Assembly (NCBI RefSeq): GCF_003002955.1
Contig: NZ_PVTJ01000002.1
Location: forward strand, 434,001-498,000
DNA: 64,000 nucleotides
Reading direction: 5' to 3'
Origin: Glycomyces artemisiae
GTDB taxonomy: Bacteria > Actinomycetota > Actinomycetes > Mycobacteriales > Micromonosporaceae
Numbering within the stretch: the stretch's first letter is position 1; each line of letters starts with the position of its first letter. Under the pieces are notes generated by a model. That model was not told the origin of the DNA and did not search any database. It saw only the letters and a list, made by a program, of their open reading frames with translations. The position numbers were made by a program, and so were the translations under genes. Below are positions 6,270 to 26,454 of the stretch, one piece after another.

Positions 6270-7151
6270 ATGAACCGACCGGAATCCGCCGCAGCGATCT
6301 TCCAAGAACTGCGACCGCGCCTCGTCGGCGTCGCGTACGGACTCCTCGGCTCCGTCAGCGAAGCCGAGGACGTCGTCCAGGACGCCTGGATGCGATTGCA
6401 GCGCACCGACGCCGACGCCATCGACGACCTCACCGGCTGGCTCGTCACCACCACCTCCCGCCTCGCCCTCGACGTCCTGCGCTCCGCACGCGTCCGCCGC
6501 GAAGCCTACGTGGGCCCGTGGCTGCCCGAACCCGTCGAGACCGCCCCCGACCCCGCCGACAGCGTCAGCCTCGCCGACTCCCTGTCCTGGGCGATGCTCG
6601 TCGTCCTCGAAACGCTCAGCCCCGCCGAGCGCGCCGCATTCGTCCTCCACGACGTCTTCGGCCTCACCTTCGACGAGGTCGCCGAGACCCTCGGCCGCAC
6701 CCCCGCCGGCTGCCGCAAGCTCGCCAGCCGCGCCCGCGAGCACGTCGAGCGCCGCCAGCCCCGCTTCGACGTCGACCCCGACGAGCACCGCCACGTCGTC
6801 GAGGCGTTCTCCCGCGCCGTCACCTCCGGCGACATCGAGGGCCTCACCGCCCTCCTCGACCCCGACGCGGTCCTCACCTCCGACGGCGGCGGCGTCGTCC
6901 GCGCCGCCCGCAACCCTGTCCGCGGCGCCGACAAGATCGCCCGCTTCCTCACCGGCGTCACCCTGCGCTACGACGACTTCCACCATCGCGTCACCACCGT
7001 CAACGGCGGCCCCGCCCTCCTCACCGTCGTCGGCGGCGAAGTCGGCGGCATCACCCTCCTCGGCATCGCCGACGGCCGCATCGTCGCCGTCGACATGGTC
7101 CGCAACCCCGACAAGCTCACCGGAATCCACGAAGTCCACCGGCCCCGATAG
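6270..7151 (+). CDS. ECF41 family RNA polymerase sigma factor with SnoaL-like C-terminus
   Basis: Sigma region 2 (IFQELRPRLVGVAYGLLGS, AEDVVQDAWMRL) and region 4 (LSPAERAAFVLHDVFGLTFDEVA, GCRKLASRAREH) are followed by an NTF2/SnoaL-like extension. All three ECF41 hallmarks are present: the WLPEP linker, the DGGG motif and the C-terminal NPDKL. In known members the extension acts in place of an anti-sigma factor. I prefer ATG 6270 over 6252 because the promoter overlaps the earlier ATG, implying a leaderless mRNA. The downstream carboxymuconolactone decarboxylase gene is the standard ECF41 partner. Confidence 0.92.
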   Translation: MNRPESAAAIFQELRPRLVGVAYGLLGSVSEAEDVVQDAWMRLQRTDADAIDDLTGWLVTTTSRLALDVLRSARVRREAYVGPWLPEPVETAPDPADSVSLADSLSWAMLVVLETLSPAERAAFVLHDVFGLTFDEVAETLGRTPAGCRKLASRAREHVERRQPRFDVDPDEHRHVVEAFSRAVTSGDIEGLTALLDPDAVLTSDGGGVVRAARNPVRGADKIARFLTGVTLRYDDFHHRVTTVNGGPALLTVVGGEVGGITLLGIADGRIVAVDMVRNPDKLTGIHEVHRPR

Positions 7152-19337: not shown

Positions 19338-20177
19338 CTACCTCAGGGCCAGGGCGATCTCCTCGATTCGTGCGTTGATGTCGTGGAGGTCGTCGGCGCT
19401 GGGGTCCCAGCCCTTGCGCAGCAGGCGATCCCGGAGCCGGATGAGCCATGGGCGGGGGTGCTCCATGACCTCCGAGGCGGTGAGGACCTCGACCTCCCAG
19501 CCGAGGGTCTGGAGGAGGTGGCGGCGCCGGTCGCCGGTTTCGGCGGCGAGTCCGAAGTGAGTGGCCATGCCGTCGTACTCGACGCCGATGCGCCACCGGT
19601 CCCAGCCGAGGTCGAGGAAGCGGGAGCGGCCGTTCGGGCCGCGGACCCGCAGTTGCGGGACCGGGGCGGGGAGACCCGCGTCGGCGATGAGGCAGCGGGT
19701 CCAGGACTCCATGGGCGACTCGGCACGCGGGTCGGCGGCGAGGAGCGTCGCGTTCGCGCGGCGCAGGCGCTCGCCTTGCAGCGGTTCGAGGGCGTCCGCG
19801 AGGCGGTGCACCTCGATGCCCGCCCGCAGGAACTGGTCGGCGGCCGCGACCGCTTCGAGGCGCGGCAGGTCGGCCGCGCAGTCCACCAGGGTCCGCGCGA
19901 GCGTGGTCACCGGGAGGCCGTCGACCACCGCGACGTCCGCGAGCACCGGATCGGAGGAGGACTCGACCGGCCACTCGCGCTGGTCGGCACCCGGCGGGAG
20001 CACGTCGAAGCCGTGGATCCAGGCCGCGGTGCGGCCCGTCGCCACTTGGGAGAAGTCGGATTCGAAGACGGTCTCGAACCGCAGGAGGAGGTCCTCCCCG
20101 GCGGTGAGCAGGTCGCCTTCGAACGGAGAATCGGTCATCACGGGAGCTGCGGTGCGGTACATCGGTTGCTGCGTCAT
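19338..20177 (-). CDS. AbiEi-like/DUF559-type protein
   Basis: A 279-residue protein from ATG 20177 (later ATGs at 20159 and 20138 are possible). The middle (VTTLARTLVDCAADLPRLEAVAAADQFLRAG) matches the AbiEi-type antitoxin-domain proteins common in actinobacteria. The C-terminus (RSRFLDLGWDRWRIGVEYDGMATHF, then GDRRRHLLQTLGWEVEVLT) is the DUF559/very-short-patch-repair nuclease-like fold; the D-x(9)-E-Y-DG residues resemble its active site. Such genes are often solitary. A role in defence or DNA repair is unproven. Confidence 0.75.
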   Translation of the reverse strand: MTQQPMYRTAAPVMTDSPFEGDLLTAGEDLLLRFETVFESDFSQVATGRTAAWIHGFDVLPPGADQREWPVESSSDPVLADVAVVDGLPVTTLARTLVDCAADLPRLEAVAAADQFLRAGIEVHRLADALEPLQGERLRRANATLLAADPRAESPMESWTRCLIADAGLPAPVPQLRVRGPNGRSRFLDLGWDRWRIGVEYDGMATHFGLAAETGDRRRHLLQTLGWEVEVLTASEVMEHPRPWLIRLRDRLLRKGWDPSADDLHDINARIEEIALALR

Positions 20178-24515: not shown

Positions 24516-25010
24516 ATGAGACCGATGCTTTCCCGGGCCGCGCGGATCGGCTGCGCCGCGGGCCTCGCCGCGTTCGCGCTGGCCGCCTGCGGCGACGACG
24601 ACGCGGACGCCACCGATGAGGCGACGACCGCGGACGGGCAGTTCGCGGCGTACACGGCGTGCCTCGAAGAGCAGGGCATCGACCTCCCCGACGACTGGAG
24701 CCCCTTCGGCGAGGGCGGCATGCCCGGCGGCGGCAACGGCGGTGAGATGCCGAGCGGGGCGCCCACCGACATGCCGTCGGACATGCCCACTGGCGAGATG
24801 CCGACCGGCGACATGCCCACCGACATGCCTTCCGGCGGATTCGGCGGCGGTGGCGGGTTCGGGGGCTTCGAGGCGCCCGACGGCGTCGACGAGGACGACT
24901 GGACGGCCGCCACGGAGGCGTGCGCGGACGAGCTCCCGCAGGGCGGCGGTATGCCCGGCGGCCAGGCCCCCGGCCAGGAGAGCGCCACCGACGAGACCAC
25001 CGAAGGCTGA
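24516..25010 (+). CDS. Lipoprotein with Met-Pro repeats
   Basis: A 164-residue protein. The signal peptide ends in the lipobox FALAAC-G, so Cys25 would be lipidated. The body has two Cys-containing conserved segments (FAAYTACLEEQGIDLPDDW and WTAATEACADELPQGGG) around a low-complexity region with repeated [DE]MP[ST] units and a Gly/Phe stretch. Many actinobacteria encode similar short lipoproteins beside sensor systems; function unknown. Divergent from the sensor-domain gene (161 bp gap). Confidence 0.8.
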   Translation: MRPMLSRAARIGCAAGLAAFALAACGDDDADATDEATTADGQFAAYTACLEEQGIDLPDDWSPFGEGGMPGGGNGGEMPSGAPTDMPSDMPTGEMPTGDMPTDMPSGGFGGGGGFGGFEAPDGVDEDDWTAATEACADELPQGGGMPGGQAPGQESATDETTEG

Positions 25011-25037
25011 GACTTTCCCCCGCTCTCCCCAGAGCAG

Positions 25038-25075
25038 GAGCGGCGCCGGACGCGCCATCGAATCGGCGCCGCTCC
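25038..25075 (+). terminator. Hairpin after the lipoprotein gene
   Basis: A 12-bp GC-rich stem (GGAGCGGCGCCG / CGGCGCCGCTCC) with a 14-base loop, 28 bases after the stop. Confidence 0.5.
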
Positions 25076-25108
25076 CGGAGAGCGTCCGGTGTGGACGAAA
25101 AGGATGGT

Positions 25109-25142
25109 GCGGCCCGGGTCGTTGACCTCGACACCGGGCCGC
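25109..25142 (-). terminator. Hairpin bounding the tRNA-like region
   Basis: A 9-bp stem (GCGGCCCGG / CCGGGCCGC) with a 16-base loop. On the minus strand it lies just past the last tRNA-like half and could end its transcript. Confidence 0.5.
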
Positions 25143-25189
25143 CATGTGCCACATAGTGGCCGTCACGCTCCTGCGGCAGCCGTTGAGTC

Positions 25190-25277
25190 TGCTGCTAGCA
25201 CAGTGCTCTGCCATTGAGCTACCGCCGCATGTGGTGCGGCGGGAAGGATTCGAACCTTCAACTCCTGTGTCCCAGGG
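25190..25277 (-). tRNA. Circularly permuted tRNA-like element 2
   Basis: Read on the minus strand a 3' half comes first: CACAG, GAGTT, T-stem GAAGG, loop TTCGAAT, CCTTC, acceptor CCGCCGC, then ACCA (25232-25269). After 3 bases the 5' half follows: GCGGCGG, TA, D-arm GCTC-AATGGCA-GAGC, A, CTGTG (25199-25228). Put in normal order every stem pairs perfectly: acceptor 7/7, D 4/4, anticodon 5/5, T 5/5, with a 5-base variable loop. Flanking CT and TGGGA would give a Pro(UGG)-like loop, but the join is unknown. A linear tRNA cannot be drawn with these parts. Confidence 0.5.
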
Positions 25278-25320
25278 GACTGCTCGCGGATGCGGTCGGC
25301 GTGGCGAATGCTGACACTGG

Positions 25321-25440
25321 AGCGAGAATCTGAATCTTCGCGGATTGCCTCTGCCAGTTGGGCCACCCCGGCACGAGTGCCGGGGGAGGGACTCGAACCC
25401 CCACCTCTACCGCGCTGTATTCCGACTGAACCTCAGTTTC
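25321..25440 (-). tRNA. Circularly permuted tRNA-like element 1
   Basis: Minus strand: a 3' half with T-stem GGGGG, loop TTCGAGT, CCCTC and acceptor CCCCGGC plus A (25378-25402) precedes, by 5 bases, a 5' half GCCGGGG-TG-GCC(CAACTGGCAGA)GGC (25346-25372). The acceptor pairs 7/7 and both arms look canonical. Anticodon pairing is less clear: TCCG can pair with CGGA in the 3' half, leaving a 17-base variable region as in class II tRNAs. Two outer segments (TTCAG/CTGAA) could hold the halves together. It may be degenerate. Confidence 0.45.
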
Positions 25441-25450
25441 AGCGTGGTTC

Positions 25451-25487
25451 GGCGCTTGCGCGCCACCCCTGCCGCTCAAAGCAGGGG
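25451..25487 (-). terminator. Double hairpin between the 244-aa gene and the tRNA-like elements
   Basis: CCCCTGC-GCAGGGG (25466-25487) followed on the minus strand by GGCGC-GCGCC (25451-25464). It may end the upstream mRNA or act as a processing site. It explains a GCAGGGG stretch that might be mistaken for a tRNA acceptor. Confidence 0.5.
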
Positions 25488-25497
25488 AGCTTGCGTC

Positions 25498-26232
25498 CTA
25501 CTCGCCGAGCAGGTACCCGAAGACCTTCGCGCCGACCTGCTCGTCGACGACCTCGGTCCCGTTGGCCTCCTCGCGCGCGAACTTGACGGCGACCTGGAGC
25601 TTCTCCAGGCGCTCGGTCAGCTGCGCGACGCGCTTCGCGGGGGCCGAGCCGGAGAACTTCACCGTCGTCCAGTAGCCGACCGGGATGTCCTCGTAGTACA
25701 CCTCGACCTGCGCCGGGTGCTCCTCGGTCGCCTCGGCCTTCACGTGGTTGCGCGGCACTTTCTTCGTGCGCACCGTCTTCACCGGGTCGGTCGCGAAGCA
25801 GTCCGCGGCCTCGTTGAACGACCACGACTCGGCCGCGTCCAGCACCGGCAGGGCCTTCACGAACGACTGGAGCTCCGCGAGCTGCTTCTCCAGGAACAGC
25901 AGGTACGTGACCGGGACGTCCGCGAGGAGGACCTCGCCGTCCACCGCGACGTCCGCCGTCGCGAGCGCGTTCGTGCGGTCCTTCGTCGCCGTCACGTCGA
26001 ACAGGCGCGTCATCGCCGCGGACACCTCGCGCAGCTGCTCCTCCACGCGGCGCTGCACCTTCGTCGACTCGGGCGGCAGCTGCTCGCCCTCCTCGTCCTT
26101 CGGCTGGTACGTCCGGGAGATGCCCGACAGCAGCGGCGCCTTCGCGAGCTCGCGCCCGGCGTCGCCGAGGGAGCGGGCGGCCTTCGCCTTGACGCTCTTC
26201 TCGATCGCGATGATCTGGTTCAACTTGGTCAC
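25498..26232 (-). CDS. Conserved 244-aa protein next to tRNA-like elements (DUF7873-like)
   Basis: From GTG 26232 with GAGGG upstream. The start (TKLNQIIAIEKSVKAKAARSL) and the later SRTYQPKDEEGEQLPPESTKV, DVPVTYLLFLEKQL, VRTKKVPRNHVKAEATEEHP and VEVYYEDIPVGYWTTVKFSG are strongly reminiscent of a widespread actinobacterial/phage family I remember as DUF7873; function unknown. No TM, no nuclease motif I can name; helical with a Lys/Glu-rich centre. The stop is 20-60 bases upstream of tRNA-like halves on the same strand. I have a recollection, unverified, that relatives also lie beside tRNA-like sequences. Confidence 0.75.
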   Translation of the reverse strand: MTKLNQIIAIEKSVKAKAARSLGDAGRELAKAPLLSGISRTYQPKDEEGEQLPPESTKVQRRVEEQLREVSAAMTRLFDVTATKDRTNALATADVAVDGEVLLADVPVTYLLFLEKQLAELQSFVKALPVLDAAESWSFNEAADCFATDPVKTVRTKKVPRNHVKAEATEEHPAQVEVYYEDIPVGYWTTVKFSGSAPAKRVAQLTERLEKLQVAVKFAREEANGTEVVDEQVGAKVFGYLLGE

Positions 26233-26454
26233 GGAGCAACCCTCACTTTCGGGCCCCACCTTAAGACGCCCCCGCCACCGGGGGCAACGCGGTTTCACCG
26301 CCCCCGCGCCGCCCCGCCGGCCACCGCCCGCCCCGAGAAACCGGGCCCGAGGGCCGCCGATCGGTTTTCGGCGGAGCGGTTTCGGGGTACTAGGGTGGGC
26401 GCGGACCGGACGGCAGGGGCGCCGCCCGGACCCGCGGCAGGACGGAGACGCGAC

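What the first reader, a model, noticed from the sequence alone, without database searches (positions are those of the whole stretch)
25190..25497. tRNA-like halves in permuted (3' before 5') order beside a 244-aa gene of unknown function
Seen directly: on the minus strand two places have a tRNA 3' half (T-arm plus acceptor) followed after 3-5 bases by a 5' half (acceptor plus D-arm). In both the acceptor strands of the adjacent halves pair 7/7. For element 2 the anticodon stem (CTGTG/CACAG) also pairs 5/5 across the permutation. A linear reading of the stretch between the two junctions gives a 141-base body with mismatched acceptor (5/7). They follow the stop of a conserved gene on the same strand. 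Known parallels are permuted tRNA genes of algae/archaea and two-piece permuted tmRNA; I know of no described bacterial system of this kind. Inference: the gene product binds, joins or uses these RNAs, perhaps in RNA repair or defence.
Basis: partly seen in the sequence, partly recalled or inferred. Interest (0 to 1): 0.88.

Follow-up and report, generated by a model that had tools for sequence, protein, structure and literature searches.

The report
Twin permuted tRNA-like RNA with DUF7873
Right after a small gene of unknown function lies a structured RNA that carries two tRNA look-alikes built back to front; the same gene-RNA pair recurs in soil bacteria and in phages of unrelated bacteria, so it is very probably a real but uncharacterised RNA-protein system.

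Summary
On the minus strand, behind a 244-aa gene (Pfam DUF7873), lie two modules in the order T-arm, 3' acceptor strand, short linker, 5' acceptor strand, D-arm. Both acceptors pair 7/7 and both anticodon-like helices 5/5; the linear reading pairs 5/7. They belong to a conserved RNA of about 400 nt. At least one module lies downstream of DUF7873 in 79 of 80 genome loci, 52 of 60 viral contigs and 10 of 11 phage loci, against 11 of 755 shuffles. Three helices not used for selection covary (z 10-21). The modules resemble YrlA, the tRNA-mimicking Y RNA that partners Ro60 (Rfam E 3e-6, below its cut-off). But the window genome has no Ro60 match, and the linkers differ from those of Ro60-linked modules: NCCA in 51 of 118 against 3 of 28, U before the 5' acceptor in 65 of 118 against 5 of 28. 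I read it as a two-component ribonucleoprotein: DUF7873 plus a double permuted tRNA mimic, a new variant of the YrlA kind. Protein binding, cutting, ligation, charging, repair and defence are untested.

The parts
25498..26232 (-). DUF7873 gene (GTG start, TAG stop), 244 aa
   Evidence: Pfam PF25283 E 8.3e-113 over residues 1-242; start and stop re-read
25101..25497 (-). whole predicted RNA, about 397 nt, from the gene's stop to just after the last hairpin (ends inferred)
   Evidence: conserved block downstream of the gene in related loci
25466..25487 (-). leader hairpin 1, CCCCTGC/GCAGGGG
   Evidence: sequence; similar hairpins in relatives, by eye
25451..25464 (-). leader hairpin 2, GGCGC/GCGCC
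   Evidence: sequence; similar in relatives, by eye
25432..25443 (-). conserved GCTGAAACTGAG strand (period-6 CTNARR motif)
   Evidence: CTNARRYTNAR in 105 of 134 loci against 71 of 1340 shuffles (loci thinned only loosely)
25410..25414 (-). module 1 anticodon-like helix, first strand CGCGG
   Evidence: pairs 5/5 with 25343-25339; own-versus-swapped z 10.0, n 57
25386..25402 (-). module 1 T-arm
   Evidence: sequence, alignment A3
25379..25385 (-). module 1 acceptor 3' strand CCCCGGC
   Evidence: 7/7 with 25372-25366
25373..25378 (-). module 1 linker ACTCGT
   Evidence: linker statistics of relatives
25366..25372 (-). module 1 acceptor 5' strand GCCGGGG
25347..25365 (-). module 1 D-arm
   Evidence: alignment A3
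25339..25343 (-). module 1 anticodon-like helix, second strand CCGCG
25290..25338 (-). conserved core between modules (...CAGATTCTCGCTCCAG...TCAGCATTCGCC...)
   Evidence: alignments
25278..25283 (-). module 2 outer helix, first strand GCAGTC (6 pairs here)
   Evidence: outer helix z 21.3, n 56; 9 alignment pairs, all with changes on both sides, 81.3% of cells paired; folded so
25265..25269 (-). module 2 anticodon-like helix, first strand CACAG
   Evidence: pairs 5/5 with 25203-25199; z 13.0, n 56; the energy fold pairs it otherwise
25243..25259 (-). module 2 T-arm
25236..25242 (-). module 2 acceptor 3' strand CCGCCGC
25229..25235 (-). module 2 linker: discriminator A, CCA, CAT
25222..25228 (-). 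module 2 acceptor 5' strand GCGGCGG
25205..25221 (-). module 2 D-arm
25199..25203 (-). module 2 anticodon-like helix, second strand CTGTG
25176..25181 (-). module 2 outer helix, second strand GGCTGC
25109..25142 (-). terminal GC-rich hairpin, probably a terminator (no full T-run)
   Evidence: conserved hairpin; the consensus scan finds no terminator by its T-run rule

Best explanation
DUF7873 and the RNA encoded next to it are the two parts of one ribonucleoprotein. The RNA is a trans-acting non-coding RNA that displays two complete tRNA elbows and acceptor stems in circularly permuted order on stalks, the same kind of domain as in YrlA Y RNAs, and DUF7873 takes the place that Ro60 has for Y RNAs. 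The modules are tRNA mimics recognised by tRNA-handling enzymes. The linkers look like real tRNA ends (discriminator, CCA, U at -1, G1:C72), so I think it more likely than not that RNase P and 3'-end enzymes open them, giving an RNA in pieces held by base pairing. The particle then either steers or blocks enzymes that act on tRNA; in phages, which often carry it among their tRNA genes, that would protect or replace the tRNA pool. Shown: structure, permutation, covariation, gene-RNA linkage. Inferred: protein-RNA binding, processing, function.
For: Linkage: modules in 79 of 80 genome, 52 of 60 viral and 10 of 11 phage loci; a covariance model finds them in 3 of the 4 module-less viral loci (of 8) that I gave it (L119, L121, L124; not L098). 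In 296 Actinomycetes genomes DUF7873 is in 25; 24 of these have a module beside it at 57.7 bits or more, and all 22 listed matches of 75 bits or more lie beside DUF7873 (the model was built from such RNAs). Structure: anticodon-like helices z 10.0 and 13.0, outer helix of module 2 z 21.3, none of them a selection criterion. In the named module-2 structure 24 of 25 pairs change on both sides and 92.4% of cells pair against 37.8-45.0% when slid (16 of the 25 pairs lie in arms that the scan had asked for). tRNA signature: U54, U55, C56, A58, U8, G19, A21 invariant and A14, G18 nearly so in module 2 (tRNA numbering by me). Ends: discriminator A 48/60 (module 1), U 37/58 (module 2); NCCA 28/60 and 23/58; -1 U 25/60 and 40/58; G1:C72 46/60 and 51/58. 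Relation to YrlA: Rfam E 3e-6; model R1 in turn finds modules about 1 kb from Ro60 genes. Trans action: in L146 weak modules (28.5 and 33.9 bits; no tRNA found there) lie 1.8-2.2 kb past the gene's end, beyond a 1278-nt CDS.
Against: No expression, binding or processing data. Encoded NCCA is in fewer than half of the modules (51 of 118); actinobacteria often add CCA enzymatically (general knowledge), so its absence is neutral. The association is not exclusive in reverse: stand-alone modules exist in L182-L184, in genomes not among the DUF7873-positive ones. Some distant phages have only one module in the scan (L147, L148, L149, L152). L098 has none. DUF7873 has no confident fold match, so nothing shows that it binds RNA. 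An outer helix of module 1 is not supported by covariation (z -0.5 and 2.2). The modules' fold energies are hardly better than shuffles.
Confidence: 0.6

Rival explanations
1. It is an ordinary Ro60-binding Y RNA (YrlA); DUF7873 is an unrelated neighbour.
For: Same permuted tRNA-like fold; YrlA hit 37.3 bits E 3e-6, sub-threshold hits at the RNA in 7 of 9 further loci. Actinobacterial modules beside Ro60 also score only 30.5-56.2 bits with Rfam's model and can come in pairs. Ro60 is in 16 of 24 other DUF7873 genomes.
Against: No Ro60 match in the window genome and none in 8 of those 24; where both are on one contig the nearest pair is about 68 kb apart. Ro60-site-like octamer (proxy) in 0 of 238 DUF7873-linked modules against 6 of 18 Ro60-linked YrlA hits on size-matched stretches. 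Different linkers. DUF7873 is the constant neighbour.
Confidence: 0.1
2. A double-headed relative of two-piece (permuted) tmRNA: both linkers are cut, the acceptor ends are aminoacylated and the RNA works on the ribosome.
For: [quoted passage not shown] CCA, discriminator, -1 U and G1:C72. A weak beta_tmRNA match to module 2 of L150, 24.5 bits.
Against: The alanine determinant G3:U70 (recalled) occurs as G-U in 2 of 60 and 3 of 58. No conserved tag frame seen: the KLKL-like stretch has 1-2 nt indels. No tmRNA family reaches threshold in the window. L101, the same length as phage GodonK, has a separate tmRNA (384-912).
Confidence: 0.15
3. A 3' cis-regulatory element of the DUF7873 mRNA that senses tRNA enzymes or protects the transcript.
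For: It lies behind the stop codon on the same strand in nearly all loci.
Against: Size, two full modules and a terminal hairpin of its own; separation from the gene by another CDS in L146 (weak scores); stand-alone modules without the gene.
Confidence: 0.12
4. Permuted tRNA genes that mature into decoding tRNAs by joining, as in algae and one archaeon.
For: Acceptor, T, D and anticodon-stem pairings are all tRNA-like.
Against: The anticodon-like stem continues into a stalk: module 2 has a covarying outer helix of 9 alignment pairs. No conserved anticodon seen. Known cases depend on the bulge-helix-bulge splicing endonuclease (PMC3978253, passages), which bacteria lack (general knowledge).
Confidence: 0.03
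5. Decayed tandem tRNA genes or chance.
For: Tandem tRNA-Asn genes score 52-63 bits with the same model.
Against: Linear acceptor pairing 7/7 in 2 of 57 against permuted 55 and 56 of 57 (the permuted pairing was selected on); helices not selected on covary; shuffles 11 of 755. A small excess of linear pairing does exist (4.30 of 7 against 3.83 swapped, z 3.9).
Confidence: 0.01

Closest known systems
YrlA / bacterial Y RNA (Rfam RF02553) with Ro60/Rsr
   Same: tRNA-like domain with T-arm, acceptor hairpin and D-arm in this order; matched by Rfam's YrlA model below its cut-off; in some actinobacterial Ro60 loci modules also come in pairs
   Different: constant partner gene DUF7873 instead of Ro60; no Ro60-site-like octamer in 238 modules, against 6 of 18 Ro60-linked hits; longer linkers with CCA and -1 U instead of short loops (5 nt or less in 3 of 118 against 15 of 28); about 400 nt with conserved core motifs
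Permuted two-piece tmRNA (Rfam RF01849-RF01851; RF04321 as told in PMC11915505, passages)
   Same: permuted tRNA-like domain with an intervening linker at the acceptor end and the anticodon arm replaced by a stalk
   Different: two domains instead of one, no alanine G3:U70, no tag frame seen, DUF7873 as neighbour; SmpB not tested
Circularly permuted tRNA genes of algae and an archaeon (PMC3978253, passages)
   Same: 3' half before 5' half, linker at the acceptor end
   Different: no anticodon loop seen; embedded in a larger conserved RNA; bacterial and phage
GOLLD and other large phage or tRNA-array RNAs (recalled; GOLLD named in passages of PMC9569102)
   Same: occur among tRNA arrays
   Different: no Rfam family reaches its cut-off in the window

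Membership tests
YrlA / Y RNA | permuted tRNA-like domain | tested here: met
   both modules
YrlA / Y RNA | Rfam RF02553 gathering score 69 | tested here: inconclusive
   37.3 and 21.4 bits; but Ro60-adjacent actinobacterial modules also stay below 69 (30.5-56.2)
YrlA / Y RNA | encoded near Ro60 (TROVE) | tested here: not met
   no PF05731 match in the window genome; none in 8 of 24 other DUF7873 genomes
YrlA / Y RNA | basal stem that binds Ro60 (proxy: GGATACTT and three variants, read off the YrlA consensus and hits) | tested here: inconclusive
   0 of 238 modules against 6 of 18 Ro60-linked hits on matched stretches; an unmatched first count was 1 of 137 downstream stretches against 9 of 16 whole loci on both strands. 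The proxy misses 12 of 18 true hits
YrlA / Y RNA | binding of Ro60 and PNPase | not testable with these tools
   -
permuted tmRNA | permuted tRNA-like domain cut into two pieces | tested here: inconclusive
   topology and end signals present; cutting untested
permuted tmRNA | alanine identity G3:U70 | tested here: not met
   G-U at 3:70 in 2 of 60 and 3 of 58
permuted tmRNA | tag-encoding frame | tested here: inconclusive
   no conserved frame seen in A3; no systematic frame test was run
permuted tmRNA | Rfam tmRNA models | tested here: not met
   no match at gathering in the window, none up to E 5 in 25000-26300
permuted decoding tRNA gene | anticodon loop after joining, bulge-helix-bulge motif | tested here: inconclusive
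   stem runs on into a covarying stalk; the motif itself was not scanned for
DUF7873 (PF25283) | Pfam score above 27 | tested here: met
   376.5 bits
known anti-phage defence | PADLOC family match of the protein | tested here: not met
   0 families

The most novel reading that the evidence does not exclude
A phage-born, three-piece ribonucleoprotein: RNase P and CCA enzymes open both linkers, leaving an RNA with two independent tRNA acceptor ends that are charged or end-modified, and DUF7873 delivers this double-headed tRNA mimic to the translation or tRNA-quality machinery. It would be a third class of permuted tRNA-like RNA beside two-piece tmRNA and YrlA.
Probability: 0.15. Interest if true: 0.93.

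Novelty: new variant of a known kind. Interest (0 to 1): 0.72.

Why it matters
It ties a protein family of unknown function to a defined RNA, found in actinobacterial chromosomes and in phages of actinobacteria, proteobacteria and cyanobacteria. It suggests that the permuted tRNA-like fold of Y RNAs is not bound to Ro60, and makes a direct test possible: does a bacterial RNA carry two tRNA ends that RNase P opens in place?

Tried and rejected

Results that complicate the reading: model R1 has some match at E 0.01 or below in 185 of 296 genomes. Of those I looked at, L177-L180 are tandem tRNA-Asn genes, L186 a tRNA-Asn/tRNA-Ser pair, L185 a tRNA-Ile/tRNA-Ala pair, L181 and L187 Ro60-linked modules, L182-L184 stand-alone modules, and the 14 stretches were chosen because they lie near Ro60; the rest were not inspected and the listing was cut. 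In the window genome R1 has 9 matches at E 1 or below; 2 are this RNA, the other 7 score 26.8 bits or less, and L190 and L191 hold ordinary tRNAs. Acceptor, T and D pairings were part of my scan's criteria and so are not independent evidence. Rows dropped: near-identical loci before (96 two-module loci to 56-60); two of the 30 rows (no tRNA-like D-arm) before the linker comparison. The 28 Ro60-linked rows were found with other criteria (perfect acceptor of 5-7 pairs, D-stem 4/4), were not thinned, and were not each checked to be YrlA. The 238 modules were not thinned. Of the 73 phage records with DUF7873 I examined 11.

Full report
What is there. The window lies in a 5.8-Mb genome (G000, contig C2); the closest copies of its DUF7873 are those of Glycomyces (88-94% identity). 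The gene at 26232-25498 (minus strand, GTG start) encodes 244 residues that match Pfam DUF7873 over its whole length (E 8.3e-113). Directly behind its stop, on the same strand, two hairpins, a conserved strand, a first tRNA-like module, a conserved core, a second tRNA-like module and a terminal GC-rich hairpin follow within about 400 bases. In each module the order is T-arm, 3' acceptor strand, short linker, 5' acceptor strand, D-arm: a tRNA cut open at the anticodon and closed at the acceptor end. Acceptors pair 7/7, and the strands outside pair as an anticodon stem, 5/5 in both modules. Energy folding of either module returns this arrangement (in module 2 the anticodon-like strands are paired otherwise); its energy is hardly better than shuffles (z -2.27 and -0.25), so the case rests on comparison, not on energy.

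Is it more than chance. I scanned 650 bases behind DUF7873 in 151 loci for a T-arm, an acceptor pairing at least 6/7 and a D-arm. At least one module was found in 79 of 80 genome loci, 52 of 60 viral contigs and 11 of 11 phage loci, against 11 of 755 dinucleotide shuffles and 13 of 148 upstream flanks (some phage flanks hold tRNA genes, not checked against the 13). Of the 11 phage loci, L146 is a 6/7 match with a 64-base linker, probably chance and not found; the covariance model places weak modules (28.5 and 33.9 bits) at 6556-6665 and 6802-6909, beyond another CDS. L041 and L105 have only 129 and 9 bases downstream. Of eight viral loci without a module in the scan, four were given to the covariance model and three of them (L119, L121, L124) have one at 61.9 bits or more; L098 has none.

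Permutation and covariation. Because acceptor, T and D arms were scan criteria, I tested helices that were not. Pairing of each sequence with itself was compared with pairing across sequences. The anticodon-like helix gives z 10.0 (module 1, 57 sequences) and 13.0 (module 2, 56), the outer helix of module 2 z 21.3; outer helices of module 1 give -0.5 and 2.2. On the module-2 alignment of 41 sequences all nine pairs of the outer helix change on both sides, with 81.3% of cells paired; over the whole named structure 92.4% of cells pair against 37.8-45.0% when slid. The linear reading fails: the 3' acceptor of module 2 with the 5' acceptor of module 1 pairs 7/7 in 2 of 57, the permuted ones in 55 and 56 of 57; the linear pairing is slightly above swapped sequences (4.30 against 3.83 of 7, z 3.9). 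The bases that build the tRNA elbow (U8, A14, G18, G19, A21, U54, U55, C56, A58 by tRNA numbering, which I assigned) are invariant or nearly so in module 2.

The ends. Between the acceptor strands the first base is A in 48 of 60 non-redundant module 1 sequences and U in 37 of 58 module 2 sequences; NCCA follows the acceptor in 28/60 and 23/58; the base before the 5' acceptor is U in 25/60 and 40/58; the first pair is G-C in 46/60 and 51/58. Linkers run from 4 to 68 bases. In modules found at Ro60 loci the linkers are mostly short loops: NCCA 3 of 28, -1 U 5 of 28, five bases or fewer in 15 of 28, against 51, 65 and 3 of 118 (Fisher p 0.001, 0.0006, 2e-10; the two sets were not collected by identical rules). 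This is what one expects if the modules have, or descend from, real tRNA ends. It does not show that they are cut.

Relatives and spread. The Rfam YrlA model matches module 2 at 37.3 bits (E 3e-6) and module 1 at 21.4 (E 0.12), below its cut-off of 69, and matches the RNA in seven of nine further loci at 25-38 bits. My module-2 model finds modules about 1 kb from Ro60 genes, so the two RNAs are of one kind. They differ: no Ro60 match exists in the window genome or in 8 of 24 other DUF7873 genomes, and a Ro60-site-like octamer read off the YrlA consensus is near 0 of 238 DUF7873-linked modules against 6 of 18 Ro60-linked YrlA hits (it misses 12 of 18, so it is a weak proxy; the unmatched first count was 1 of 137 against 9 of 16). 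A review states that the basal stem of YrlA holds Rsr while the tRNA-like domain holds PNPase and is modified by DusA and TruB (PMC8394870, passages). DUF7873 is in 25 of 296 Actinomycetes genomes; in 24 of the 25 a module lies beside it, the exception (G197) having only two partial matches to the gene; all 22 listed matches of 75 bits or more lie beside DUF7873. The protein is also in 73 phage records, of Vibrio, Gordonia, Rhizobium, Klebsiella, Serratia, Arthrobacter, Rhodococcus, Pseudanabaena and Microcoleus phages; I examined 11, several with the gene among tRNA genes. In a tree of 71 sequences thinned from 151 (midpoint root only), 11 of 13 chromosomal rows sit with four viral contigs in one shallow part of a much deeper viral diversity (support 94/94), which suggests but does not prove a phage origin.

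The protein. The best predicted structure is confident (mean pLDDT 91.7, pTM 0.67; two of the five models only 63-64): helices towards both ends and a strand-rich stretch at 137-190. The most conserved stretch is near the C terminus, KFAREEAN in this copy. No solved or viral structure matches firmly. Whether it binds RNA is inferred from linkage alone.

How it most likely works. The constant pairing of one protein with one RNA, the lack of another constant neighbour (no family in more than 23 of 80 loci) and the separation of the two in L146 point to a ribonucleoprotein whose RNA acts in trans. The RNA shows tRNA elbows and acceptor ends to enzymes that know tRNA; DUF7873 stands where Ro60 stands in the Y RNA particle. 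Processing of the linkers to a multi-piece RNA is my preferred but unshown next step; in permuted tmRNA the same topology is cleaved by tRNA enzymes into two paired pieces (PMC11915505, passages). Alanine charging as in tmRNA is unlikely, since G3:U70 (recalled) is rare. Several phages keep the unit among their tRNA genes, which fits a role in guarding or managing tRNA; this is inference.

Verdict. Its claim of a wholly new kind is too strong, since YrlA is a known tRNA mimic with the same order of arms, but the DUF7873-linked RNA is a distinct, double, tRNA-ended variant of which the papers listed by my searches show no description; only listings and passages were seen, and the main YrlA papers are not held.

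Noticed in passing
L183 1647-1760 (-), L184 1721-1827 (-), L211 1367-1481 (+): Stand-alone permuted modules (57.6, 46.3 and 36.6 bits) near ORFs other than DUF7873. The ORFs in L183 and L184 hold RNLTAH and RNCVIH, which look like HEPN nuclease motifs (recalled; no Pfam family above cut-off). L211 carries a 29% identical relative of the L183 ORF and a module of its own; the relative position differs. A possible second gene-RNA pairing; relatives of the L184 ORF were not found in viral contigs and the genome search failed.
   Followed up: partly
L177-L180: Head-to-tail tandem tRNA-Asn genes in unnamed actinobacterial genomes score 52-63 bits with a permuted-module model: a trap for any search for permuted tRNAs.
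   Followed up: yes
L187, L197, L202, L206: Modules at Ro60 loci can come in pairs about 210-250 bases apart, so paired modules are not unique to DUF7873.
   Followed up: partly
window 25432-25443; also L147, L148, L152: A period-6 motif (CTNARR repeated; AAACTNAAACTNAA in Vibrio and Rhizobium phages) precedes the modules: CTNARRYTNAR in 105 of 134 loci against 71 of 1340 shuffles. CTTAAAYG, seen near the 3' end, is in 58 of 134 against 11 of 1340. Roles unknown, perhaps protein-binding sites.
   Followed up: partly
L182 1312-1426 (-): A permuted module (54 bits) fills a gap in a dense tRNA array of a genome not among the DUF7873-positive ones.
   Followed up: no
L101 384-912: This viral contig (same length as Gordonia phage GodonK) also encodes a standard tmRNA (90.3 bits).
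   Followed up: no
L109 3001-3726; G197 C27: The DUF7873 match of L109 holds an in-frame stop, and G197 has only two partial matches to the gene: possible decay.
   Followed up: no
window 19945-20037 (+): ARAGORN's only tRNA in the window (tRNA-Ala CGC) lies inside overlapping ORFs and has no Rfam tRNA match: probably false.
   Followed up: no
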